Assembly (NCBI GenBank): GCA_026707585.1
Contig: JAPOWQ010000045.1
Coordinates: 1-39,189 of the forward strand
DNA: 39,189 nucleotides
Reading direction: 5' to 3'
Source: Chloroflexota bacterium
Lineage (GTDB): Bacteria; Chloroflexota; UBA11872
In this document: one piece after another, positions 26,625 to 39,189 of the stretch
Numbering within the stretch: the first letter of the stretch is position 1
Layout: every line of letters begins with the position of its first letter
Made by a program: the position numbers and the translations under genes
The notes under the pieces: generated by a model
Told to the model about the DNA's origin: nothing
Databases searched by the model: none
Seen by the model: the letters and a program-made list of their open reading frames with translations, nothing else

Positions 26625-26653
26625 TTGCCGGTCGTATGCGGATCGTGTACACT
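26625..26653 (+). promoter_or_regulatory. Candidate sigma70-type promoter for the portal-like gene
   Basis: TTGCCG at 26625-26630 and TACACT at 26648-26653 stand 17 bases apart, about 58 bases before ATG 26712. Both hexamers match the consensus at four of six positions. It is inferred from spacing and position. Confidence 0.4.
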
Positions 26654-26711
26654 CGCGCAGCTTGCCAGCGATGTCCCGTGGGTCCGTTTGGTCGGACCTG
26701 GAGTGGGGCGA

Positions 26712-28430
26712 ATGCCAGAGTCTGAAGCGCAGCGTCTGCCGCCGAGCGAGACGTATCTGCGCGAGCTGGAGGAGCAACTGCTGGGGGAGTTCGGCGAGCG
26801 CAACGCGCGTATCGAACGCCTGCGGCGGCTGCGGTACATGGAAACGCCGGTGGATATTCCGCCGGCCTACCGAAGCAGCGCCCGCGAGGTGCGCACGCCG
26901 GTGGCGCGCGAGCAGCTGAAGCGGGTGATCGGCAGCCTGACGGCCAACCGCCCGCTGGTGCACGTGCCACCGGCCGAACCCACGGCGGCGGCGCGGACGA
27001 GCGCGGACCTGCGGGCCCGCTGGACGAACGCGGCGCTGCGGCGCATGGACAGCGAAGCGGCGCGCGACGTGTTCGGGATGCTGATCGACGCGATGGTGGC
27101 GGACGGCGCGGGGGTGCTGAAGCTGCTGTACGCGCCGGACCGCTGGGCGGGCTATCCGCGACGCGCCGGCGAGCCCGATGAGTCGGCAGCGACGTTCTTG
27201 CAGCGCGCGGAGCGTTTTAAGAAGTCGGCGCGGTTTCCGCTGGCGTGGCGGGACGTGGACGTCACGACGTTCTATCCGCTGGAAGGCGAGGAGGGGCTGG
27301 AGGCCTGCCTGGAGATTGCCGAACGGCCGCGACACCTGGTTCAGCGGCGGTATGGGCTGATCTCGGATCGGCGGAGCGGGCGGCTGGTTCCGGCCGATGG
27401 TGCACCCCGGGCCGCGGACCGGTCGGCCGGGCCGCCGGCAGCGCCCAACGCCGCGCCGCGCGTGACCGCCCGCGTGGTGGAGTACTGGGACGACGAGTAC
27501 TTTGCCTACCTGGTGGACGGGCACCTGGTGCGCCGGGGTCGACACGGGTACGGAGCGATTCCCTACGTGCAGGCCTACGGGGACCAGACGCCCAGCCGCG
27601 ATCCGGCCAAGGCGGGGGTGTCCATGCTGGCCTCCATGGAGTACCTGGTGCCGCTGCTGGATCAGCTGCTGACCATGAAGCAGAACGCGCTGTTCCTGTA
27701 CGCCTATCCGACGCCCAAGATCACCAACTTCTCACCGGTCGATCCCAGCCTGGGCAACGACGGCCGGCCGCGGTCGCTGGACTTTCGGCCGGGCGAGCTT
27801 CTCCCGCTCTACCAGGGCGAGGACCTGAGCTTTCTGCAGTGGGAGGGCACGCCGCCGGACCTGGACGAACTGATTGCGCAGACGCGGGCGATGATCGACC
27901 AGGCCGGTGCGCCGAGTGTGCTGTTCGGCGTTCCGCCGGACGGCAACGCCAGCGGCTATCTGCTGAATCAGCTGATCAACACGGCGCGGGTCTCGTTCCA
28001 GCAGATCGCCCGGCACGCGGAGCAGGCGCTGGAGCGGATCGTGCGGCTGATGTGGCGGCTGGTGGAGTCGCGCATCGGCGAGACGGTGTTCGTGTTCGAG
28101 GCCGAGGACGAGCAGGGCTGGATTGGGCTGGGTCCGGAGGACATCGACGGCTATCGCGCCGTGCGGGTGCGAATGGATCCGCTGGGTCCCGCCGATGACG
28201 TGGCGCAAGGCACGCTGGCCGCCAGCCTGGTGAGCGCGCGGCTGGCCTCCCGTCGCTGGGCGATGCGCGAGAAGCTGGGCATCGAGGATGCCGAGGCCGT
28301 GGAGGACGAGATGCTGCTGGACGAACTGATCGACGCCCCGGAGGTGCGGGCGGCGATTGTGCGGGAGGCGCTGGGTCAAGCCGGGTTCGCGTCGCCGCCG
28401 GCGAAGGAGCCCGCCGATGTCGGCGCCTGA
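26712..28430 (+). CDS. Phage portal-like protein
   Basis: The 572-residue protein resembles tailed-phage portal proteins (P22-like group): a helical N-terminus, REQLKRVIGSLTANRPLV, a DADGAG-like core (here MVADGAGVLKLLY), a tryptophan-rich central region, and the C-terminal helical part SVLFGVPPDGNASGYLLNQL followed by long amphipathic helices. Portals form the dodecameric DNA entry ring of the capsid. ATG 26712 has GGAG 8 bases upstream and is preferred to a frame opening at 26625. No terminase, protease or capsid gene is seen nearby, so this is a solitary gene: a prophage remnant, a gene-transfer-agent piece or a domesticated protein. Confidence 0.6.
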   Translation: MPESEAQRLPPSETYLRELEEQLLGEFGERNARIERLRRLRYMETPVDIPPAYRSSAREVRTPVAREQLKRVIGSLTANRPLVHVPPAEPTAAARTSADLRARWTNAALRRMDSEAARDVFGMLIDAMVADGAGVLKLLYAPDRWAGYPRRAGEPDESAATFLQRAERFKKSARFPLAWRDVDVTTFYPLEGEEGLEACLEIAERPRHLVQRRYGLISDRRSGRLVPADGAPRAADRSAGPPAAPNAAPRVTARVVEYWDDEYFAYLVDGHLVRRGRHGYGAIPYVQAYGDQTPSRDPAKAGVSMLASMEYLVPLLDQLLTMKQNALFLYAYPTPKITNFSPVDPSLGNDGRPRSLDFRPGELLPLYQGEDLSFLQWEGTPPDLDELIAQTRAMIDQAGAPSVLFGVPPDGNASGYLLNQLINTARVSFQQIARHAEQALERIVRLMWRLVESRIGETVFVFEAEDEQGWIGLGPEDIDGYRAVRVRMDPLGPADDVAQGTLAASLVSARLASRRWAMREKLGIEDAEAVEDEMLLDELIDAPEVRAAIVREALGQAGFASPPAKEPADVGA

Positions 28431-29035: not shown

Positions 29036-32000
29036 CTACTGCCAGTCACGGGATGGCGGCGTGCCCAGGTAGTCGGACGTGACCGGCGAGCAGGTTTCGG
29101 CCATCACCTGGACCGCCCCATGCTCGTCCTGGAGTTCGCCGTCGATCATCATTACCAGCGAGTCCAGGATCGCGCGCTGGTAGCGGGTGAAGATGTCCGG
29201 GCGAATGATCACGTTCACCAGCCCGGTTTCATCCTCCAGCGACAGGAAGGTGTAGCCGCGCGCGGTTGGCGGGTGTTGGCGGTTGAGGACGATCCCGGCC
29301 ACGGTGACCATGATTCCGGTGCGGGCCTGTTCGCGGAGCGAGTCCGGCACGCCGCTATCGCCCAGGCCCTGGAGTTGTCGGCCGCTGCCTCGGCCGTCGT
29401 AGCTGTTGCCGGCACGACGGGCCCGCTGGCCGTAGCGTCCCGCGGCGCTCTGCTGGGGCCGGCGCCATCCACCGGTTCGCTGCTTCCCTAGGGGGGAGTG
29501 TTCCTGTGGCCGGGGAACGGCCGCCGGGATCGAGACCCGACGGATCCGAGGGCGCGGCCGGGTGGCCGCCAGGGCCGGCAGGTCCGCGGCGCGCAGCACC
29601 CCCGCCTCGGCCAGCGTTGTCCGCAGAAACTCCAGGCCGCGCCAGCGGGTTGAGAGGCCGGTCGCGGCAAAGTCCATGTGCGCCTGCACCAGCGCGTCGG
29701 CCGGGGGCAGCGTGACGGGTTCCTCCAGGTCCGCCGCCAGCCCCGGCAGTTCGCCGCCCTGGGCGGCTGACGCAAAGGCCTGCACCTGCCAGAGCGCCGC
29801 GCGCCGGTTCAGCCCAAGGCTCCGAAACGCCCCCGCCGTGGCCAGCGCTTCCAACACGTTGCTGGGCAACCGCGTCCGGCGGCAAAAGGCTTCCAGCGAG
29901 CCATAGGGCCCTCGGGCAATCTCGCCGTCCAACCGCTCACGGTGGTCGTCTCCCAGGCTTTCCACGTACCGATACCCCAGCCGTACCGCGCTGTCCGACT
30001 CGACCGTGCACTCGAAGCGGCTGCGCTGAACGTCCACGGGGCGCACCGTCACTCCGTGCCGCTGGGCGTCGCCCACCAGCGTATGCGGGCTGTAGAAGCC
30101 CATCGGCTGGCTGTTCAGAATCGCGCAGGTGAACTCCGCGTGGTAATACACCTTCAGCCAGGCCGAGACGTAGACCAGGAGCGCAAACGCGCAGGAGTGC
30201 GCCTCGGGAAACCCATACCCCGCATAGCCCTCGATCTGCGCGTAAATCTGTTCCGCCGTCGACGCCGGGATGCCGTTGCGGGCCATGCCGCGCATCAGGT
30301 CGTCCTGCAACGCCTGGATGTGCGCGAGGGAACGCTTGCGGCTCATGGCGCGTCGCAGCGCGTCGGCCTTGGTCGCCGAGAACCCCGCGGCAACCATGGC
30401 GATCTGCAGGCACTGCTCCTGGAAGATCGGCAGCCCCAGCGTGCGCTGCAGCACGGAGGCCAGGCCGGGCCACACGGGATCGGCCGCTTCCTGCCCGAGG
30501 CGACGCAGGATCCAGCGCCGGTGCATCTTGGTCGTCATTGGGCCCGGCCGGATGATGGCCACCTGCACCACCAGGTCGTAGAAGCACCGCGGCCGCGTCT
30601 GCGGCAGCACGTGCATCTGGGCGCGGCTCTCCACCTGGAACAGGCCAATGGTGTCGGCCGCGCAAATCGCGTCATAGACCTTCGGGTCGTCGAAGGTGAA
30701 ATCCGCCAGCGCCAGCCGCCGCCCGTGCCGTTGCTCGATCAGCCGGAAGGCCCGCTGCACCAGCGTCAGCATCCCCAGCCCCAGCAGGTCGATCTTCAGC
30801 AGCCCGGCGTCCGCGCAGTCGTCCTTGTCCCACTGCGCCACGCTGCGCCCTTCCATCGTCGCCGGCTCGATCGGCACCGAGGCGTCCAGCGGGCGTGACG
30901 AGATGATCATCCCTCCGGTATGGATCCCCAGGTGCCGCGGAAAGTCCACGATCTCCCGGCTCAGCTCCAGCAGATCGCGCCCCACGCGGCTGGAAACCTC
31001 GGTCGGCAGGTCCCCGCCGGCCTGGTCCGGGTCGGGCATCGCAATGCTGGGATGCCACTGCAACCGCTGCGCCAACCGGTCCACCTGGGCCAGCGGCAGC
31101 CCCAGCGCCTTGCCCACGTCGCGGATGGCCGAGCGCCCGCGAAAGCAGATCACGTTCGCCACCATCGCCGCCCGCCGCCGGCCGTAGCGCTGGTACACGT
31201 ACTGGATCACCCGCTCGCGCTGCTGGTGCTCGATGTCCAGGTCGATGTCCGGCGGCTCGTCCCGATCCGGCGACATGAACCGCTCGAACATCAGCCCGGC
31301 CGCCATGGGATCCACCATCGAGATCTCCAGCACGTAACAGAGGATCGACCCCGGCGCCGAGCCGCGGGTGTTGACCAGGATGTCGTTGCGGTGACAGAAG
31401 CCCACCAGGTCCCGCACCGTCAGGAAATACCCCGCCAGCCCCTGGTCCTCGACGTACCGCAGTTCCTGCAGCACCCGATCCCGCACCGTTGCGTCCAGGT
31501 CGGGATAGCGCCGCCGCACGCCCTCCCAGACCAACCGCTCCATGTAGCGGTATTCCGACTCGCCCTCCGGCGTGGGATACGCCGGCAGGCCGTATGCCAG
31601 CTTCCGGCTCAGGTCGAAATCGCACATCTCCGCAACGCGCACGGTGTTGCTGATCGCCTCGGGCACATCGGCAAAAAGCCGTGACATCTCCGCGGCGGAC
31701 TTCAGCACGAACTCGTGGTTTGGCCGCAACCGCCGTCCCGCCGTTTCCAGCGTGACGGTGTGCCTGATGCAGACCAGCACGTCCTGCAAGCGTGCCCGCG
31801 CCCGGTCGTGGTAGTGGACGTTGTTGGTCGCCACCAGCGGCAGCCCCGTGTCCCGCGCGACCTCCAGCAACCCGGCGTTCGCCAGGTGCTCCGCCTCCAG
31901 CCTGTGATCCTGCAGTTCCAGGAAAAAGCACCCCGCCTCGAACATCTCGGCATGCGTCCCCGCCAGCTCAACGGCCTGGCGGCTGTCGCCAGCCAGCGTT

Positions 32001-32404
32001 GCGGACGCGACCGCCCCCTGCGGGCAGCCCGAGAGCCCCACCACGCCCCGCGTGTGCCGCGCCAGGGTGTCGAGATCAAGCTCCGCCATTCCCTTCGGCC
32101 GGTCGTGGTGGGCCGCGGTCGCCAGCCGGCAGATGTTGGCGTAGCCCTCCCGGTCGCGCGCCAGCAGGGTCAGGTGATGCCCCCCGGCCATGCTGGCCTC
32201 CATCCCCACGATGGGGCGCAGGCCATGCTCCCGCGCCGCCTGCGAGAACCGCACCGCGCCGTACACCCCGTCGTGATCCGTGATCGCCAGCGCCCGCAAC
32301 CCAAGCTCGGCGGCCCGCGCCGCCATTTCCTCGGGATGCGACGCCCCGTCCAGGAAGGAAAAGTTGCTGTGCGCGTGCAACTCCGCGTACGCGGGTCGGG
32401 TCAA
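29036..32404 (-). CDS. dnaE2: Error-prone DNA polymerase III alpha subunit, DnaE2/ImuC type
   Basis: The 1122-residue polymerase performs translesion synthesis with ImuA and ImuB. An N-terminal PHP domain (ELHAHSNFSFLDGA) leads into the C-family polymerase core with the metal motif PDIDLDIEHQQRERV, then the ESRAQMHVLPQTRPRCFYDL region typical of DnaE2, helix-hairpin-helix repeats, and a C-terminal OB-fold (YTFLSLEDETGLVNVIIRP). Between them, about residues 940-1000, is a Gly/Arg/Gln-rich linker without obvious homology. The beta-clamp motif could not be placed. ATG 32404 overlaps the imuB stop by 4 bases. Confidence 0.93.
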   Translation of the reverse strand: MTRPAYAELHAHSNFSFLDGASHPEEMAARAAELGLRALAITDHDGVYGAVRFSQAAREHGLRPIVGMEASMAGGHHLTLLARDREGYANICRLATAAHHDRPKGMAELDLDTLARHTRGVVGLSGCPQGAVASATLAGDSRQAVELAGTHAEMFEAGCFFLELQDHRLEAEHLANAGLLEVARDTGLPLVATNNVHYHDRARARLQDVLVCIRHTVTLETAGRRLRPNHEFVLKSAAEMSRLFADVPEAISNTVRVAEMCDFDLSRKLAYGLPAYPTPEGESEYRYMERLVWEGVRRRYPDLDATVRDRVLQELRYVEDQGLAGYFLTVRDLVGFCHRNDILVNTRGSAPGSILCYVLEISMVDPMAAGLMFERFMSPDRDEPPDIDLDIEHQQRERVIQYVYQRYGRRRAAMVANVICFRGRSAIRDVGKALGLPLAQVDRLAQRLQWHPSIAMPDPDQAGGDLPTEVSSRVGRDLLELSREIVDFPRHLGIHTGGMIISSRPLDASVPIEPATMEGRSVAQWDKDDCADAGLLKIDLLGLGMLTLVQRAFRLIEQRHGRRLALADFTFDDPKVYDAICAADTIGLFQVESRAQMHVLPQTRPRCFYDLVVQVAIIRPGPMTTKMHRRWILRRLGQEAADPVWPGLASVLQRTLGLPIFQEQCLQIAMVAAGFSATKADALRRAMSRKRSLAHIQALQDDLMRGMARNGIPASTAEQIYAQIEGYAGYGFPEAHSCAFALLVYVSAWLKVYYHAEFTCAILNSQPMGFYSPHTLVGDAQRHGVTVRPVDVQRSRFECTVESDSAVRLGYRYVESLGDDHRERLDGEIARGPYGSLEAFCRRTRLPSNVLEALATAGAFRSLGLNRRAALWQVQAFASAAQGGELPGLAADLEEPVTLPPADALVQAHMDFAATGLSTRWRGLEFLRTTLAEAGVLRAADLPALAATRPRPRIRRVSIPAAVPRPQEHSPLGKQRTGGWRRPQQSAAGRYGQRARRAGNSYDGRGSGRQLQGLGDSGVPDSLREQARTGIMVTVAGIVLNRQHPPTARGYTFLSLEDETGLVNVIIRPDIFTRYQRAILDSLVMMIDGELQDEHGAVQVMAETCSPVTSDYLGTPPSRDWQ

Positions 32405-34086
32405 TCCAGGGCCCCCTGCGCAAACCAGCCCGACTCGGCGCGCTCGCGGTAGAGCGCCAGCCCGCGCCCGTCGTCCAGCCGCACGTGCAGGTAATCACGG
32501 TCCATGGGCTTCGCCCACCACTCCGTCTGCACCCGCTGCGGCCCGTAGCGAGCGACGACCTTCCGGGTTGTCCCATCCAGCGTCACCCGGCCGGCCCCAT
32601 CGATCCTGCTGATCCGCACCGGCCGCGGCGGCGTGAAAAGGCGCGTGAGCCCCCGCGTCCCCGCCAACCCGGCCAGCCACGCCGGGGAGGTTGTTGGCGC
32701 GTCGCGCTGGGCGCCCGTCTCAACGTAGGCGTCAGTTCGTCGAGCCGCCGTCTCCAGCGTCCAGGCCTCGGGGCATAGCTCCATGCGGAACACCGCGTCG
32801 TCCCCCAGCTGCGCCCGCAGCCGGCTGATCGCGTGGTTCGCCCGCGCCGTCCGCTCCGACCGGTTGCCCAGCAGCGACCGCTGCGTGCCGGCCCCCGGAA
32901 CCAGCTGCTGCACGTCCAGGGCAATCCGCACCACCCCGGGCCGGTCCAGCGGAATCTCCGGCATGGCGGACTCACCCTGGGAAACCCCTGCATAACCCCG
33001 CCTCGACCTAGAAAGCGGGGCCGCTCTTTCTCCCTCTCCCTCTGGGAGAGGGTTGGGGTGAGGGTCTTCCTGGCAATCACCTCTCAGGGTTTCGCAAAGG
33101 TCTCTCTGGGCATCCCCGGCCCACGCCTCCAGCCGCCACCGGGCCGCGTCCCGCAAGCTGGCCGCGCTGCCGGACGCCTCAGGCAGATCCAATGAGAACC
33201 GCTGCACCGTCCCGTCCGCCCGCTCGATCCGGCTGCCTACCTGCTGCGCCATCAGCCCACGCCTCGCCAGCCGCGCGGCCAGGCGCTGCGCCAGGGCATG
33301 CAGAGCGAACGTCAGCCGGTCCACGTTGTGCTCTTCCCACTCGAAGTCGATCGCCTCATCCAGGACGATCGGCCGCGGCCGTCCCCGCGGGGGGTGCGGA
33401 TCCTCGCCGCAGGCCAGCCGCCACGCCCGCGCGCCCTCAATCCCGTACCGCGTTCGCACGGCATTAGTCGGCAGATCGGCGAACGCGCCGATCGTGGCCA
33501 CGCCCAGGATCCGCAGCTGCCGGAGCGTCCGCTCGTCCAGCGGCAGCCGGTCGACCGGTTGGCTGGCCAGGTACGCCCGGTCGTCGCCCGAAACCGCGGC
33601 CACGCCCACATTGCCCGCCGTACGCGCCGCAACCTCCGCCGCCAGGCGTCCGGTTGCCAGTCCGACCTGGGCCGTCTGACCCGTCGCCGCTTCCACGTCG
33701 CGGCGCACCCGCGCGCCCAGCGCCGCGTGCGGGCCGTACAGCGGCGCCAGGCCGGCCGCGTCGGCAAACGCCAGGCCCACCCCGGCGTCCTCCACCACCG
33801 GCGAAAACCGGTCCAGCACGTCCAGCACCGCCGCGAACGCCTGGCCGTACCGCGGCGGATCGTCAGGCACGTAAACGCCCTGCGGACAGCGCTGCGCCGC
33901 TTCCTTCACGGCCATCCCCAGGCGCAAGCCCGCGGCTTCAGCCGCTTCGGAAACCTCGATCAGCCGCCGCTGGTTAGCTTGCCTCGCGTAGATCGCCCGC
34001 GGCTGCCCCGACCACGACGGCTGCGTCTGCGCCTCCACCGTGGTCCGAAAGCGCGGAATCCACAGGCACAACGTCCTGCGGTCCAT
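32401..34086 (-). CDS. imuB: ImuB, non-catalytic Y-family polymerase-like protein
   Basis: ImuB bridges the mutasome (ImuA, DnaE2, beta clamp). The 561-residue protein has Y-family fold traces (LCLWIPRFRTTVEA, GLRLGMAVKEAAQRCP, GVATIGAFADLPTNAVRTRYG) but lacks the catalytic acids (the first strand is LWIPRF; VGLAFADAAG replaces the SxDE motif), as usual for ImuB. Near residues 346-383 is a segment foreign to the family, containing DPHPNPLPEGEGE; this is the translation of a dispersed palindromic repeat (33032-33052) inserted in frame. imuA overlaps its 5' end by 113 bases. Confidence 0.88.
   Translation of the reverse strand: MDRRTLCLWIPRFRTTVEAQTQPSWSGQPRAIYARQANQRRLIEVSEAAEAAGLRLGMAVKEAAQRCPQGVYVPDDPPRYGQAFAAVLDVLDRFSPVVEDAGVGLAFADAAGLAPLYGPHAALGARVRRDVEAATGQTAQVGLATGRLAAEVAARTAGNVGVAAVSGDDRAYLASQPVDRLPLDERTLRQLRILGVATIGAFADLPTNAVRTRYGIEGARAWRLACGEDPHPPRGRPRPIVLDEAIDFEWEEHNVDRLTFALHALAQRLAARLARRGLMAQQVGSRIERADGTVQRFSLDLPEASGSAASLRDAARWRLEAWAGDAQRDLCETLRGDCQEDPHPNPLPEGEGERAAPLSRSRRGYAGVSQGESAMPEIPLDRPGVVRIALDVQQLVPGAGTQRSLLGNRSERTARANHAISRLRAQLGDDAVFRMELCPEAWTLETAARRTDAYVETGAQRDAPTTSPAWLAGLAGTRGLTRLFTPPRPVRISRIDGAGRVTLDGTTRKVVARYGPQRVQTEWWAKPMDRDYLHVRLDDGRGLALYRERAESGWFAQGALD
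33032..33052. repeat. Palindromic dispersed repeat inside imuB
   Basis: CCCTCTCCC (33032-33040) and GGGAGAGGG (33044-33052) flank TCT: a perfect 9-base stem. With the following TTGGGGTGAGGG it is the repeat whose translations (HPNPLPEGEGE in one frame, TPTLSQRERE in another) turn up in proteins of many unrelated bacteria. The element around it includes a second hairpin, CCCCGC/GCGGGG at about 32996-33020. Here it lies in the reading frame without breaking it. Confidence 0.75.
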
Positions 34087-34870
34087 CAGACCTCCTGAGA
34101 AACGGACAGTCGATCACCAGGTGCTGCACCCCCGTGTCGCTGCGCGACTTCAACACCCGGACCTCCAGCGTCAATCCCATCGGGACCTGCGTCAGGCGGC
34201 TGCGCTGCCACCGCCAGCCCCGGCAGGCCACCCCCAGCCGCAGCGAGGCCAGGTAGGGCAACCCGGCAACGCGCTGGTTGCCGGTCGTTGTCACCGCGAT
34301 CAGGCTCGCCGCCCCGCGTCCCGCCAAATCGGCCAGCTGCGACCACCGGTTGCCGCGCGGCCGCGCCGACTCCAGGTCCAGCAGCACCGCCTCGAAGGCC
34401 TGGCTCCGCAGCAACGTCGCACTCGCGTGTAGAGCCATCTCGGCATCCGGCGGCCGCACCACCACGAGCCGCGACAAATCCAGGTCCATCGCCACACCAG
34501 CGGTGGGCGCAAACGTCCCCGGCAGGTCCACGTAAGCTGCCAACCCCCCGCCATCCAGCGCGGCGCCCAGCACCCGCCACCCCAGCGTCAGCGCCCCGCC
34601 GCCCGGCGGACCGGTCAGTTCACTCAGCCGCCCCCTGGGAATCCCCTCGAACCCGGTCGCCCGGTCCAGCGCCTCGCTGCCGGTCGAAAACCCGGCCTCT
34701 GGCGGACTGACCCCAAACAGCCGCCCCGCGGCATGCAACCCCCAGCGCCGTTCGATTTCATGCACGGCCGTCCGCAACGCGGCGGGACGCTCGGTATCGG
34801 GAAGAGCCAGCGGAACACCCTGGGCAATACGGGACCCCATGATACCAAACAAAAAGCGAACACCAGTCAC
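33974..34870 (-). CDS. imuA: ImuA, RecA-like protein of the mutasome cassette
   Basis: The 298-residue protein has a RecA-like core preceded by FSTGSEALDRATGFEGIPRG, with a degenerate Walker A (GPPGGGALTL; the Lys and Thr of a working P-loop are missing), followed by AAYVDLPGTF and LIAVTTTGNQR. ImuA and the SulA-like proteins share such a RecA fold. The stop at 33974 makes a 113-base overlap with imuB, so its last 37 or so residues may be a read-through extension of a shorter ancestor. The start is GTG 34870; ATG 34840 is an alternative. No LexA box could be recognised upstream. Confidence 0.82.
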   Translation of the reverse strand: MTGVRFLFGIMGSRIAQGVPLALPDTERPAALRTAVHEIERRWGLHAAGRLFGVSPPEAGFSTGSEALDRATGFEGIPRGRLSELTGPPGGGALTLGWRVLGAALDGGGLAAYVDLPGTFAPTAGVAMDLDLSRLVVVRPPDAEMALHASATLLRSQAFEAVLLDLESARPRGNRWSQLADLAGRGAASLIAVTTTGNQRVAGLPYLASLRLGVACRGWRWQRSRLTQVPMGLTLEVRVLKSRSDTGVQHLVIDCPFLRRSDGPQDVVPVDSALSDHGGGADAAVVVGAAAGDLREAS

Positions 34871-35568: not shown

Positions 35569-35943
35569 ACCCCCGCCACCCACCCCTCCGGACCGCACCC
35601 GCCGCCTCCGCCCCCTCTTGCGTAGAGCCTGCCCTGAGCCTGTCGAACGGGGGCGACGTCCCCGACCCGCCCGTCTTCCGTGCACCCGTCAGCGGATGCC
35701 CACCCCCCCGGCACCCAAGCCCTCCCCTCGCACCTTCCTCACCTCGTCAACCCGAAGTCCGTCGAGGGCCTACTTTGAGCTACCCGAAGGGGCTCCGGCC
35801 GTAACCATTGCGGTCGGTCGCAGCCTGCCACCCTTATCACTCCGTGACCTCAAGCTCAGGCACTCCAGGCTCAGGCAGTTGATTCCCTCTATGCTGGAGG
35901 GTGGTACCTTACAGATCACGAACGCCAAGCACGGTATGAAGAC
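35569..35943. other. Repeat-rich spacer with a base-composition break
   Basis: No gene is supported. The left part is C-rich with repeat fragments (35626-35650). Around 35770 the composition changes from about 70% GC to near 50% and stays lower to the window end, marking a probable junction of acquired DNA. An open frame runs into the HD gene from 35848 but contains no accepted start before TTG 35944. Confidence 0.5.
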
Positions 35944-37284
35944 TTGCCGACCCGAGAGGTCAGAGATCCCGTGCATGGGTTCATCGAATTGGCAAAGGAG
36001 GAATGGGATCTGGTCGACACGCCGGTATTCCAGCGACTTCGAGGAATTCGGCAGCTCGCACTCGCATCTCTGGTATATCCAGGTGCTACCCATACACGCT
36101 TTGAACACTCGCTAGGTGTGACACATGTTGCAGGCAGAATGGCCAGGCAGCTCGACCTCGAGCCTGATTCCCAGAAGCTCGTGCGACATGCAGCCCTGCT
36201 TCACGACTTAGGGCATGGACCTTTCTCACATATTTCCGAAGAGGCGCTCGAAATCCTCAATACCGACGCGTCGTCAGGGTCAAGCCTGCCAATTCACGAA
36301 GCGATTGGTCACCGTATCATCTCCTCAGACGAGCAAATCGGCCGCCATGTTTCACCCAAATACGCTGAGGAGATTCTGGAAGTTTTGACTGGATCAGCTG
36401 AAACTACGGTGATGACTCAAATAATCACAGGCCCAGCCGATGCCGACAAGCAGGATTATCTCCTCCGTGACAGTGCCGCCTGCGGAGTGGAATACGGCAC
36501 TTATGATATCGATAGGCTGCACAATACTCTTTGCAGTATAGAAGACAAATTTGACACCTATATAGCCTTCACATATGGAGGTGTCGAAGCTCTAGAACAG
36601 TTTGTATTAGCCAAGTACTATATGAACTCACAGGTCTATAGCCATAGAGTTCGTCGAATCACCGATGCGATGATTCTGCGCGCATTGCAGCTCGGAACTG
36701 AAGTCGACCAAATTGGGTTTCTGAGGGATGCATTTCTGTATTCTGATGATGATGCATATTTGCAAAATTACTTATCCTGCGATGACTTGCGGATCGTATC
36801 CGAGGCGAGGGGTCCGAATTGGACTGGCACTTGGTTCGCCAAGATATTCGCAAAGCTATCTGAGCGTCGACTTCTCAAAGAAGTCTTCACGACTCGTGTC
36901 AACGATCTCTCGTCAGATTCGCTTCGGGCATTAGTGGAGGGTGTGAAGCCAGAAGCAAAGAAGGGAATTGAAGATAGAGTTGCAGATATCTTGGGCTGTG
37001 AAGCTGAGTATGTCATTCTGCATGAATACTCAATAGGCTGGTCGCCAAAGTCAAGTGAGTCTGAGATTCAGATTTATGATGGTAATAGAGGGCGGCCTTT
37101 TTCAGAATCATCGACGATTTTCAGCACTGTGGAAGAAGCCTTACAGGAACGCTGGCTGACCGTCTATGCTCCGCGAGATAGTGATGAGTCGACAGCCGGC
37201 CGGAAGTTGGCTGCGTCCAGACATGACCGCATCAAGTCCGAAATCGAGACGGAGATTCGTAGACACGCCGGAGGTGGCCCATGA
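35944..37284 (+). CDS. HD-domain dNTP triphosphohydrolase-like protein (YwfO/EF1143 type)
   Basis: The 446-residue protein starts with RDPVHGFIEL, as in the dGTPase/SAMHD1-related family. HD metal ligands are His55 (TRFEHSLG), His87-Asp88 (HAALLHDLGHGPFSH) and Asp168 (DADKQDYLLRD); VEYGTYDIDRL follows as in the family. Members such as E. faecalis EF1143 cleave dNTPs to nucleosides and triphosphate. The start is TTG 35944; no ATG is available, and the frame fits the family N-terminus. GC is clearly below that of the left part of the window, suggesting transfer. It overlaps the next gene by 4 bases, so the two work as a unit. Depletion of dNTPs is a known way to block phage growth. Confidence 0.82.
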   Translation: MPTREVRDPVHGFIELAKEEWDLVDTPVFQRLRGIRQLALASLVYPGATHTRFEHSLGVTHVAGRMARQLDLEPDSQKLVRHAALLHDLGHGPFSHISEEALEILNTDASSGSSLPIHEAIGHRIISSDEQIGRHVSPKYAEEILEVLTGSAETTVMTQIITGPADADKQDYLLRDSAACGVEYGTYDIDRLHNTLCSIEDKFDTYIAFTYGGVEALEQFVLAKYYMNSQVYSHRVRRITDAMILRALQLGTEVDQIGFLRDAFLYSDDDAYLQNYLSCDDLRIVSEARGPNWTGTWFAKIFAKLSERRLLKEVFTTRVNDLSSDSLRALVEGVKPEAKKGIEDRVADILGCEAEYVILHEYSIGWSPKSSESEIQIYDGNRGRPFSESSTIFSTVEEALQERWLTVYAPRDSDESTAGRKLAASRHDRIKSEIETEIRRHAGGGP

Positions 37285-37838
37285 CTCTGCGGACAACTCT
37301 GCTTCTCATGCTCGCGGCATGGGGCTCTGATATGCGTGGGAAAACGTTCCTCCAGAAGAATGCGTATTTTATGTCGAAGCTCCTTGGTGAAGATCTTGGG
37401 TTTCGTCCCCACTACTACGGGCCTTACTCCCCAAAGCTAGAGATGGCGTTGGGAGAATTGCGCGGAATGGGTATTGTGTCTGAGTCGGTGAGTACTTTTG
37501 GTGTTGTGGACTCGGCTGGATTCCAACGTAAACGATATGACTACAGCTTGACCGCCGACGGTCGGCATGTTGCCAATGCCATTCAAGGTGATCTGAAGGT
37601 AGAGTCTGAGGCAATAGACATGGCGGTAAAGAAGATCAAACGTGCAGGTGGAGATATGGGCTATTGGTCTTTGGCTGTTGCCGCGAAGACACACTTTGTG
37701 ATTTCGGCTAGTGGTTCTAGTCTTTCTGAGCAGGACGTTGTTGATCGTGCGGAGGGATTCGGATGGGACGTCGACGAGAAGCAAGTCTGTGAGGCGACAG
37801 AGTTCCTTGGACGGCTAGAATTGATAGCTCGGGATTAG
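37281..37838 (+). CDS. YwgA/Panacea-like winged-helix protein coupled to the HD dNTPase
   Basis: The 185-residue protein has a GKTFLQKNAYF motif (20-30) and YYGPYSPKL (45-53), the pattern of YwgA and of the SocA/Panacea (DUF4065) group, several of which are antitoxins. A linker and a second helical part (about 95-185) follow. In Bacillus subtilis ywgA lies next to ywfO, the HD protein gene, the same pairing as here. The ATGA overlap with the HD gene implies coupling. A likely role is control of the HD enzyme, or sensing; this is an inference from pairing and family. Confidence 0.68.
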   Translation: MTLRTTLLLMLAAWGSDMRGKTFLQKNAYFMSKLLGEDLGFRPHYYGPYSPKLEMALGELRGMGIVSESVSTFGVVDSAGFQRKRYDYSLTADGRHVANAIQGDLKVESEAIDMAVKKIKRAGGDMGYWSLAVAAKTHFVISASGSSLSEQDVVDRAEGFGWDVDEKQVCEATEFLGRLELIARD

Positions 37839-38217
37839 GTCATGAATTGACGTCGTGTGGAGATCTCTTCTGCGAGTAAGAATGTCATTGCAAAACTAGC
37901 ATAGTTCACCATTGCCTCTGTCCGCATCATGGCTATCGATCTCGTGATCTACGGTCGTTGTACCCGTGTCATACCGAGTGAACTTAGGGCTGGATCGCTG
38001 CTTGATCTGATCTGAATTAGCGGAGACCGTTATTCGCGTTGACTTCCCCAGTCTCAGCTTCGGGCGAGTCTGACATTCGGTGCCTAAGTCTAGCCGCGTT
38101 TAGACAAGTGCTTTGCGGACAATATTGCACAGAGGCGTTGTTTCCGTGGACTTGCGTCAAAGAGAAGGATTGACGTCATCGATGGGACATCTCGGGCACC
38201 GGCGTTTCAGACCTTGG
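37839..38217. other. AT-richer gap between convergent genes
   Basis: I see no gene, repeat or clear terminator in these 379 bases. Composition is like the HD/YwgA genes and unlike the left part of the window. Confidence 0.45.
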
Positions 38218-39189
38218 CTACGCCACTTGTGAAAAACGCTGTGGCCCACGACGTCTATCGTCGAGAGTCAGGCCGAGCTTCTGTGCTAGCTCGATTTCCA
38301 GCTTGGCGACGGCCGCATTCTCCGACTCGTCAGCTCTCATCCGCAACTCGCTCGCTTGTTCTGCCGCATCCGCTATCTCGTTTTCGACATCGCACGCGAG
38401 TCTCGGAATCGGGAGTTGCTCAATATCTTCTGGTGCCAGGTGTGGAACGGAAGTTCCAAAGGCACGACTCACAACGAGCGGCTTTCCAAGCGTTGGGTGT
38501 GAGAGGACGGTTTGCAAGTAGCCCGACCGAACGCAATTGGGTTTCGGTATGATTCGTATTATATCTTCAGTGAGCACCTTATCTCTATGCCATTGGTTGG
38601 ACAAGATAGCCTGCCCATTGATCCCGTAAGTTTGTCCGGAGCGAGCCATGAGTAGCCATCCATCTTGGACCATATAAGAGTCGAAGTCGATCTTGGTTGC
38701 TGGCGCCAGAAACTTTGTTAGCTCGGGATTGATCCTGAAGATTGGCTCACTATCAACGAATGTGGTGCCCGTTTCACCGTAGATACGCTTAAACCGGCTA
38801 GGTAGGTAGACCTGAGCAATTTCCTTCAACGCCGTGACGTCCGAGGCGTTGCGCTGATATGTGCGCGCAATGAACGTCGAACTTGGGCTATGTGCTTTCG
38901 CTTCCAGCCTGCGGCGTCCTCCGAAGAGCCGCGATGCAGGGACGGTGTAGCCGTCTTCGGATGCCATATTGGGCTGATCGTCCATTGCATTCGCAAATCG
39001 GGTCCGGGCAGCCGTATCCATGTGGTACGCCTCGTCGCGTGCCGTCAAGGCTTCGGCGATGTGGTCATGCGTCTCGCCAATGAGCTCGTCGAGCATGGGA
39101 ATTGGCAATTCTGTGAGGTGTGCAACTTCGAGGTGTTTGATCACGTTCCCGTAGTGACTCCCGCGCATCATGGCGCGTCCGAATCGTGT
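38218..39189 (-). CDS. Restriction-modification specificity subunit (HsdS-type), 5' end outside window
   Basis: The frame is open to the window edge (TRFGRAMMRGSHYGN...), so the ATG at 39171 is probably internal. The visible part holds the end of a first target-recognition domain (VAHLTELPIPML), a spacer helix, a second recognition domain (with a YGINGQAILSNQWH core and VLSHPTLGKPLVVSRAFG) closed by PEDIEQLPIPRL, and a C-terminal helix (VENEIADAAEQASELRMRADE). The ELPIP/QLPIP plus helix pattern is that of HsdS. HsdM and HsdR, or the genes of another methylase-based system, should lie to the right. Confidence 0.75.
   Translation of the reverse strand, partial: TRFGRAMMRGSHYGNVIKHLEVAHLTELPIPMLDELIGETHDHIAEALTARDEAYHMDTAARTRFANAMDDQPNMASEDGYTVPASRLFGGRRRLEAKAHSPSSTFIARTYQRNASDVTALKEIAQVYLPSRFKRIYGETGTTFVDSEPIFRINPELTKFLAPATKIDFDSYMVQDGWLLMARSGQTYGINGQAILSNQWHRDKVLTEDIIRIIPKPNCVRSGYLQTVLSHPTLGKPLVVSRAFGTSVPHLAPEDIEQLPIPRLACDVENEIADAAEQASELRMRADESENAAVAKLEIELAQKLGLTLDDRRRGPQRFSQVA

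What the first reader, a model, noticed from the sequence alone, without database searches (positions are those of the whole stretch)
35944..39189. HD dNTPase plus YwgA/Panacea-like partner beside an HsdS gene: candidate defence or toxin-antitoxin module
Two 4-base-overlapping genes encode a dNTP-hydrolase-like HD protein and a small protein of a group that includes antitoxins. They lie in an AT-richer island next to a restriction specificity subunit. The pair ywfO-ywgA in Bacillus has no accepted joint function. dNTP depletion is a known antiviral strategy, so the partner may restrain the enzyme until infection.
Basis: partly seen in the sequence, partly recalled or inferred. Interest (0 to 1): 0.72.

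Follow-up and report, generated by a model that had tools for sequence, protein, structure and literature searches.

The report
dNTPase gene paired with antitoxin-like partner
A bacterial enzyme predicted to destroy DNA building blocks is encoded together with a small protein related to known antitoxin domains, as a mobile two-gene unit that in this lineage sits beside virus-defence genes; it is probably a restrained emergency weapon, but neither toxicity nor protection has been tested.

Summary
At 35944-37284 a 446-aa HD protein of the EF1143/SAMHD1 dNTPase class carries a complete catalytic set. It overlaps by 4 bases (ATGA) a 185-aa partner at 37281-37838. Both lie in a 50% GC stretch of a 68% GC Chloroflexota contig, near a MAD5-like HsdS gene cut off by the contig end.

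The partner family matches the DarG C-terminal antitoxin domain (PDB 7yk3, E 2.4e-9), Bacillus-type YwgA and, weakly through one relative, Panacea.

In related genomes the two genes form one cassette: in G205 about 2.1 kb holding only the pair is conserved between unrelated flanks. Both genes are under purifying selection. On an HD tree pairing is strongly clustered, and partner and HD trees agree.

The defence link is real but moderate. Restriction/methyltransferase genes lie beside 5 of 15 paired loci and 0 of 18 unpaired HD loci; most deeper relatives, and the Bacillus pair, sit in housekeeping surroundings.

Best reading: an ancient dNTPase plus protein regulator pair, recruited here as a TA-like, conditionally released dNTP-depleting effector beside methyltransferase systems. 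It resembles Clover in logic but has an unrelated regulator. Direction of control and any anti-phage effect are untested.

The parts
35944..37284 (+). HD-domain dNTPase-class gene (446 aa, TTG start): HD domain plus HD_assoc_2; a YwfO/EF1143/SAMHD1-class protein
   Evidence: start pinned by an in-frame stop just upstream in G205; dN/dS 0.14-0.16
36106..36108 (+). codon of H55, first metal ligand (equivalent of SAMHD1 H167)
   Evidence: alignment; residue roles from PMC7045340
36202..36207 (+). codons of H87-D88, the HD motif (SAMHD1 H206-D207), followed by H91, H96 and E99 (H210, H215, D218)
   Evidence: alignment
36445..36447 (+). codon of D168, last metal ligand (SAMHD1 D311)
   Evidence: alignment
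37270..37274 (+). GGAGG, probable ribosome-binding site of the partner inside the end of the HD gene; identical in all three congeneric loci
   Evidence: function inferred
37281..37838 (+). partner gene (185 aa), YwgA/DarG-C-terminal-domain family, motif G-T-LQK-YF-HYYGPYS; overlaps the HD gene by ATGA
   Evidence: dN/dS 0.13-0.19
35829..37838 (+). extent of the two-gene cassette conserved with G205 although the flanks differ
   Evidence: blastn
38218..39189 (-). MAD5-like type I/II specificity subunit (HsdS), 5' end lost at the contig end; a neighbour, probably a separate system
   Evidence: complete orthologue with adjacent MAD2-like methyltransferase in G101

Best explanation
A two-gene, TA-like effector cassette. 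The HD protein is a SAMHD1/EF1143-class enzyme that splits dNTPs. The partner is a dedicated protein regulator of the YwgA/DarG-C-terminal-domain family, made by translational coupling from the same mRNA, that most likely binds the HD enzyme directly and keeps it inactive. Phage infection, or failure of the neighbouring restriction/methyltransferase system, would relieve the restraint and let the enzyme drain dNTPs, stopping phage DNA synthesis and probably host growth. Shown by sequence: intact catalytic residues, one transcription/translation unit, co-inheritance as a cassette, partner homology to an antitoxin domain, defence neighbours in this clade. Inferred: dNTP as substrate, direct binding, inhibition rather than activation, the trigger, and the anti-phage outcome.
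For: Catalytic set H55, H87-D88, H91, H96, E99, H118, D168 aligns with SAMHD1/EF1143. Partner profile finds the DarG C-terminal domain at E 2.4e-9 and DarG-sized proteins in genomes and plasmids; one paired relative weakly matches SocA_Panacea. The DarG domain neutralises its toxin by occluding the active site (PMC11481870). The cassette is conserved alone between unrelated flanks. Pairing is clustered on the HD tree, 3 changes against 13.4 shuffled, 0 of 500; the window's clade has 100/99 support in both trees and distances correlate, r 0.66 among 11 non-redundant pairs, p 0.0006. Restriction or anti-phage methyltransferase genes adjoin G000, G101, G205, G337 and G162: 5/15 paired versus 0/18 unpaired, p 0.013, or 0.028 with the syntenic window/G101 counted once. 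Patchy distribution, 3 of 13 congeneric genomes, in low-GC DNA. Purifying selection on both genes.
Against: 10 of 15 Chloroflexota pairs and the Priestia ywfO-ywgA pair lie among housekeeping genes. Counting any defence gene the enrichment is only 5/15 versus 1/18, p 0.053. The partner is not notably acidic (pI 5.7), so it is not an obvious nucleic-acid mimic. No relatives of the partner in plasmid, phage or viral collections. Structure models were too poor to use. No data on toxicity or protection.
Confidence: 0.42

Rival explanations
1. A housekeeping dNTP-pool regulator. The pair keeps its ancestral ywfO-ywgA role of balancing dNTPs, with the partner as an ordinary regulatory subunit, and it lies near restriction genes only because accessory islands collect mobile genes.
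For: Most deeper pairs lie among ribosomal, gyrB, nuo, ppx or metabolic genes, and the Priestia pair is at the usual chromosomal-type ywf-ywh gene order. Housekeeping dNTPases exist, for example EF1143 (PMC8177086).
Against: In the window's genus it is patchy (3 of 13 genomes), low-GC and moved as a bare cassette next to different restriction systems, unlike a core housekeeping gene. The association is with methyltransferase systems in particular.
Confidence: 0.3
2. The partner activates or targets the HD enzyme: it is a sensor of phage DNA or protein that switches on an otherwise idle dNTPase, so the HD protein alone would be harmless.
For: The regulator is encoded second, EF1143 and SAMHD1 need activation by nucleotides (PMC8177086, PMC7045340), and tandem partner copies occur in G432.
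Against: The only functionally known homologous domains, the DarG C-terminal domain and Panacea, are inhibitors.
Confidence: 0.15
3. The HD enzyme acts on another substrate, such as a signal nucleotide, and the partner is a toxin or effector it controls.
For: HD-domain proteins act on many phosphorylated substrates (PMC8177086); substrate was not tested here.
Against: Full conservation of the SAMHD1/EF1143 active site and of the guanine-site residues D25, Q30, R33 equivalent to SAMHD1 D137, Q142, R145. The partner resembles no enzyme.
Confidence: 0.08
4. The pair is an integral part of a MADS-like or type I restriction system formed with the adjacent HsdS.
For: MAD5-like HsdS beside it in the window and MAD2 plus MAD5 homologues in G101.
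Against: In G205 and G162 the neighbours are type IIG enzymes, in G337 a DUF499-centred BREX-related system; the genes are convergent with the HsdS, not in one operon; the homologues score below the curated MADS cut-offs.
Confidence: 0.05

Closest known systems
Bacillus ywfO-ywgA type pair (seen here in Priestia megaterium)
   Same: HD dNTPase-class protein followed directly by a YwgA-family protein; partner profile matches Priestia YwgA at E 5e-18
   Different: Bacillus-type pair sits among housekeeping genes with a gap between the genes; no published joint function was found
Clover (CloA dGTPase + CloB nucleotidyltransferase)
   Same: Two-gene dNTP-depleting module with a partner dedicated to restraining the hydrolase (PMC12265719)
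   Different: CloB is a Pol-beta nucleotidyltransferase making p3diT; the partner here is a DarG-C-terminal-domain relative, so restraint would be by protein contact, not by a nucleotide signal
DarTG, DarG C-terminal domain
   Same: Partner is homologous to this antitoxin domain
   Different: DarT is a DNA ADP-ribosyltransferase and DarG also carries a macrodomain; here the domain stands alone and the presumed target is an HD dNTPase; the partner is not strongly acidic
Panacea (PanAT / SocAB) antitoxins
   Same: Distant superfamily relation; one paired relative weakly matches SocA_Panacea
   Different: Window partner does not match it; Panacea swaps partners freely whereas this partner tracks its HD protein
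Anti-phage dGTPase defence (Tal et al. type)
   Same: dNTP depletion by an HD enzyme
   Different: HD protein scores 28 bits against a cut-off of 400 for antiphage_dGTPase and matches PADLOC dGTPase only over residues 25-106
PrrC, an anticodon nuclease silenced by a linked type I restriction enzyme
   Same: Possible logic of a back-up effector linked to a restriction system (PMC2610378)
   Different: PrrC cuts tRNA and is held by the restriction enzyme itself; here the HD has its own partner

Membership tests
EF1143/SAMHD1-class (COG1078-type) dNTPases | HD metal site and catalytic residues H167, H206/D207, H210, H215, D218, H233, D311 (SAMHD1 numbers) | tested here: met
   H55, H87/D88, H91, H96, E99 (acidic instead of D), H118, D168 by the alignment; the H118 assignment is by eye outside the aligned block
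EF1143/SAMHD1-class (COG1078-type) dNTPases | dNTP triphosphohydrolase activity | not testable with these tools
   needs purified protein
YwgA / DarG C-terminal-domain superfamily | Significant profile match to known members | tested here: met
   7yk3_B E 2.4e-9; Priestia YwgA E 5e-18
Panacea (PF13274) | Match to the SocA_Panacea model above cut-off | tested here: not met
   No match for the window partner; best relative 19.1 bits against 25.7
Clover | CloB-type Pol-beta nucleotidyltransferase partner | tested here: not met
   Partner has no nucleotidyltransferase match and is homologous to DarG C-terminal domain
Anti-phage dGTPase (NF041026, PADLOC dGTPase) | Full-length match over the curated cut-off | tested here: not met
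   28.2 bits against 400; only residues 25-106 in PADLOC
Type II toxin-antitoxin system | Toxicity of one gene relieved by the other through direct binding | not testable with these tools
   bench test required
Type II toxin-antitoxin system | Two small adjacent, coupled genes that travel as a unit | tested here: met
   4-base overlap and a cassette conserved alone; HD at 446 aa is large for a toxin
MADS | Full set of mad genes including MAD2 and MAD5 over cut-off | tested here: not met
   MAD5-like 177.7/400 in the window; MAD2 654.7/720 and MAD5 266.9/400 in G101, no further mad genes on that contig; the window contig ends, so absence there is not informative

The most novel reading that the evidence does not exclude
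A new kind of conditional dNTP-depletion immunity: a SAMHD1-like bacterial dNTPase held inactive by a stand-alone DarG-C-terminal-domain/YwgA antitoxin, acting as a second-line guard beside methyltransferase-based defence systems, and explaining the ywfO-ywgA pair as a domesticated relative.
Probability: 0.27. Interest if true: 0.78.

Novelty: new variant of a known kind. Interest (0 to 1): 0.5.

Why it matters
It would link SAMHD1-type dNTP depletion to an antitoxin domain so far tied to DNA ADP-ribosylation, and give a second, nucleotide-signal-free way to restrain a defence dNTPase besides Clover. It would also make the old ywfO-ywgA gene pair testable. A 2026 survey of auxiliary effectors around BREX-related systems describes nucleases, and searching its main text for HD, dNTP, SAMHD1 or YwgA terms gave nothing.

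Tried and rejected
9mr6, first suspected to be CloA, aligns like a SAMHD1-type protein and was not pursued. Viral, plasmid and phage collections gave no partner relatives; HD-only relatives occur there. A DNA-mimic mechanism by gross negative charge was checked and not supported. Membership in MADS, Clover and dGTPase defence was tested and rejected. An alignment of all partners was too divergent for a viral pattern scan.

Full report
WHAT IS THERE. The window is a complete contig of a Chloroflexota genome and ends at 39189. The HD gene (35944-37284) and partner gene (37281-37838) overlap by ATGA, with GGAGG just upstream of the partner start. The TTG start is supported because in G205 an in-frame stop lies just before the same codon. 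The pair is 51% GC against 68% for the rest of the contig. About 380 bp further on, in the opposite direction, is an HsdS gene related to MAD5; its 5' end is lost at the contig end.

THE HD PROTEIN. Pfam HD and HD_assoc_2 are over cut-off. Best solved relatives are 2hek, EF1143 (2o6i), 2q14 and SAMHD1. Metal ligands and catalytic residues of SAMHD1 (PMC7045340) are all present: H55, H87-D88, H91, H96, E99 for D218, D168, and by eye H118 for H233. Residues D25, Q30 and R33 match the SAMHD1 guanine-site residues D137, Q142 and R145. EF1143 is a proven dNTPase of this class (PMC8177086). A dNTPase is therefore likely, but substrate was not tested.

THE PARTNER. Alone it has no Pfam match and only weak DarG matches. 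A profile of nine paired homologues finds the DarG C-terminal domain 7yk3 at E 2.4e-9 and proteins of DarG length in many genomes. Relatives also hit macro-domain proteins, presumably DarG, on plasmids, and one weakly matches SocA_Panacea. A profile of ten such sequences finds Priestia YwgA at E 5e-18, directly downstream of an HD gene at a ywfO-ywgA-type locus. The DarG domain blocks its toxin by occupying the active site (PMC11481870). The conserved motif is G-T-LQK-YF-HYYGPYS.

IS IT A UNIT. In the window's genus the pair occurs in 3 of 13 genomes. Between G205 and G101 the shared DNA (about 2.1 kb, 89% identical) begins about 155 bp before the HD start and ends about 75 bp after the partner; beyond that the flanks are unrelated. 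Window and G205 share 35829-37838 only. Window and G101 are syntenic, sharing also an upstream 572-601-aa gene and the HsdS. Both genes show dN/dS of 0.13-0.19. Among 45 HD proteins pairing needs 3 changes against 13.4 in shuffles (0 of 500); the window clade (window, G101, G205, G432, G425, G337, G458) has 100/99 support. The partner tree gives the same clade with 100/99, and distances correlate (r 0.95 for 16 pairs; r 0.66, p 0.0006 for 11 non-redundant ones). So the partner tracks its HD protein, unlike the free partner exchange reported for Panacea. Correlated distances fit co-inheritance and do not prove contact.

IS IT DEFENCE. Neighbours within about 6 kb were scanned against PADLOC at E 1e-15. 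Restriction or anti-phage methyltransferase genes adjoin five of 15 paired loci: window (MAD5-like); G101 (MAD2-like and MAD5-like, plus a NotI-like enzyme and a D12 methyltransferase on the other side); G205 (type IIG enzyme); G337 (DUF1156-DUF3780-DUF499 system, DUF1156 over cut-off, called a Type-2 BREX-related system in PMC12839542); and G162 (type IIG enzyme). Among 18 unpaired HD loci none of the 25 best families was a restriction or methyltransferase family; one locus lies beside CRISPR I-C. Fisher p is 0.013 for restriction genes (0.028 with the window and G101 counted once) and 0.053 for any defence gene. Caveats: the sample is small, 11 weaker families in the unpaired set were not displayed, generic mad3 and MzaA hits there were not inspected, and my simple gene caller misread some high-GC unpaired loci. 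The other ten pairs lie among ribosomal, gyrB, nuo, ppx, metabolic or transposase genes.

INTERPRETATION. The pair is an old regulator-enzyme unit. In this clade it behaves like an accessory, mobile, restriction-associated cassette. The partner's homology makes direct inhibition the likeliest role. Release on infection, dNTP drain and growth arrest are inferences by analogy with Clover (PMC12265719) and with restriction-linked PrrC (PMC2610378). A housekeeping dNTP-balance role carried along in an island remains a serious rival.

NOVELTY. Searches of the open literature found no paper on a ywfO-ywgA or HD-YwgA joint function; subscription papers were not searchable. Defence by dNTP depletion is known; this regulator for it is not, as far as found. 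Hence a new variant of a known kind, not a new category.

Noticed in passing
window 29036-34870: imuA-imuB-dnaE2-type mutagenesis cassette (ImuB confirmed by the IMS match) lies between the 601-aa gene at 26625 and the pair; G101 has the two flanks adjacent without this cassette.
   Followed up: partly
window 33001-33104: A dispersed repeat reading PHPNPLPEGEGE lies in frame inside the ImuB gene; similar copies occur in L008 at 5202, 17263 and 18409.
   Followed up: no
window 26625-28430: 601-aa gene that looks phage-portal-like by eye but has no Pfam match; conserved next to the island in G101.
   Followed up: partly
L117 2003-5065 (G432): HD gene followed by two tandem partner genes and flanked by transposase-like genes.
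   Followed up: partly
L009 934-3491 and 8539-9027 (G101): D12 methyltransferase, NotI-like endonuclease and NYN protein upstream of the pair, and a HEPN protein between partner and HsdS.
   Followed up: yes
L043 5631-9416 and L046 3812-7431: Radical SAM, 3'-5' exonuclease, AAA ATPase and an unpaired HD protein form a conserved cassette on rhizobial and Labrenzia plasmids, near a Shedu-domain protein in one and an N-6 DNA methylase in the other: another candidate defence unit.
   Followed up: no
L134 (G042): An unpaired HD protein of the same class lies beside a CRISPR type I-C Cas3 gene.
   Followed up: no
Klebsiella prophage MK416019 and plasmid L044 7980-9512: A single, highly diverged HD protein of this class is carried by Klebsiella prophages and plasmids without a partner.
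   Followed up: no
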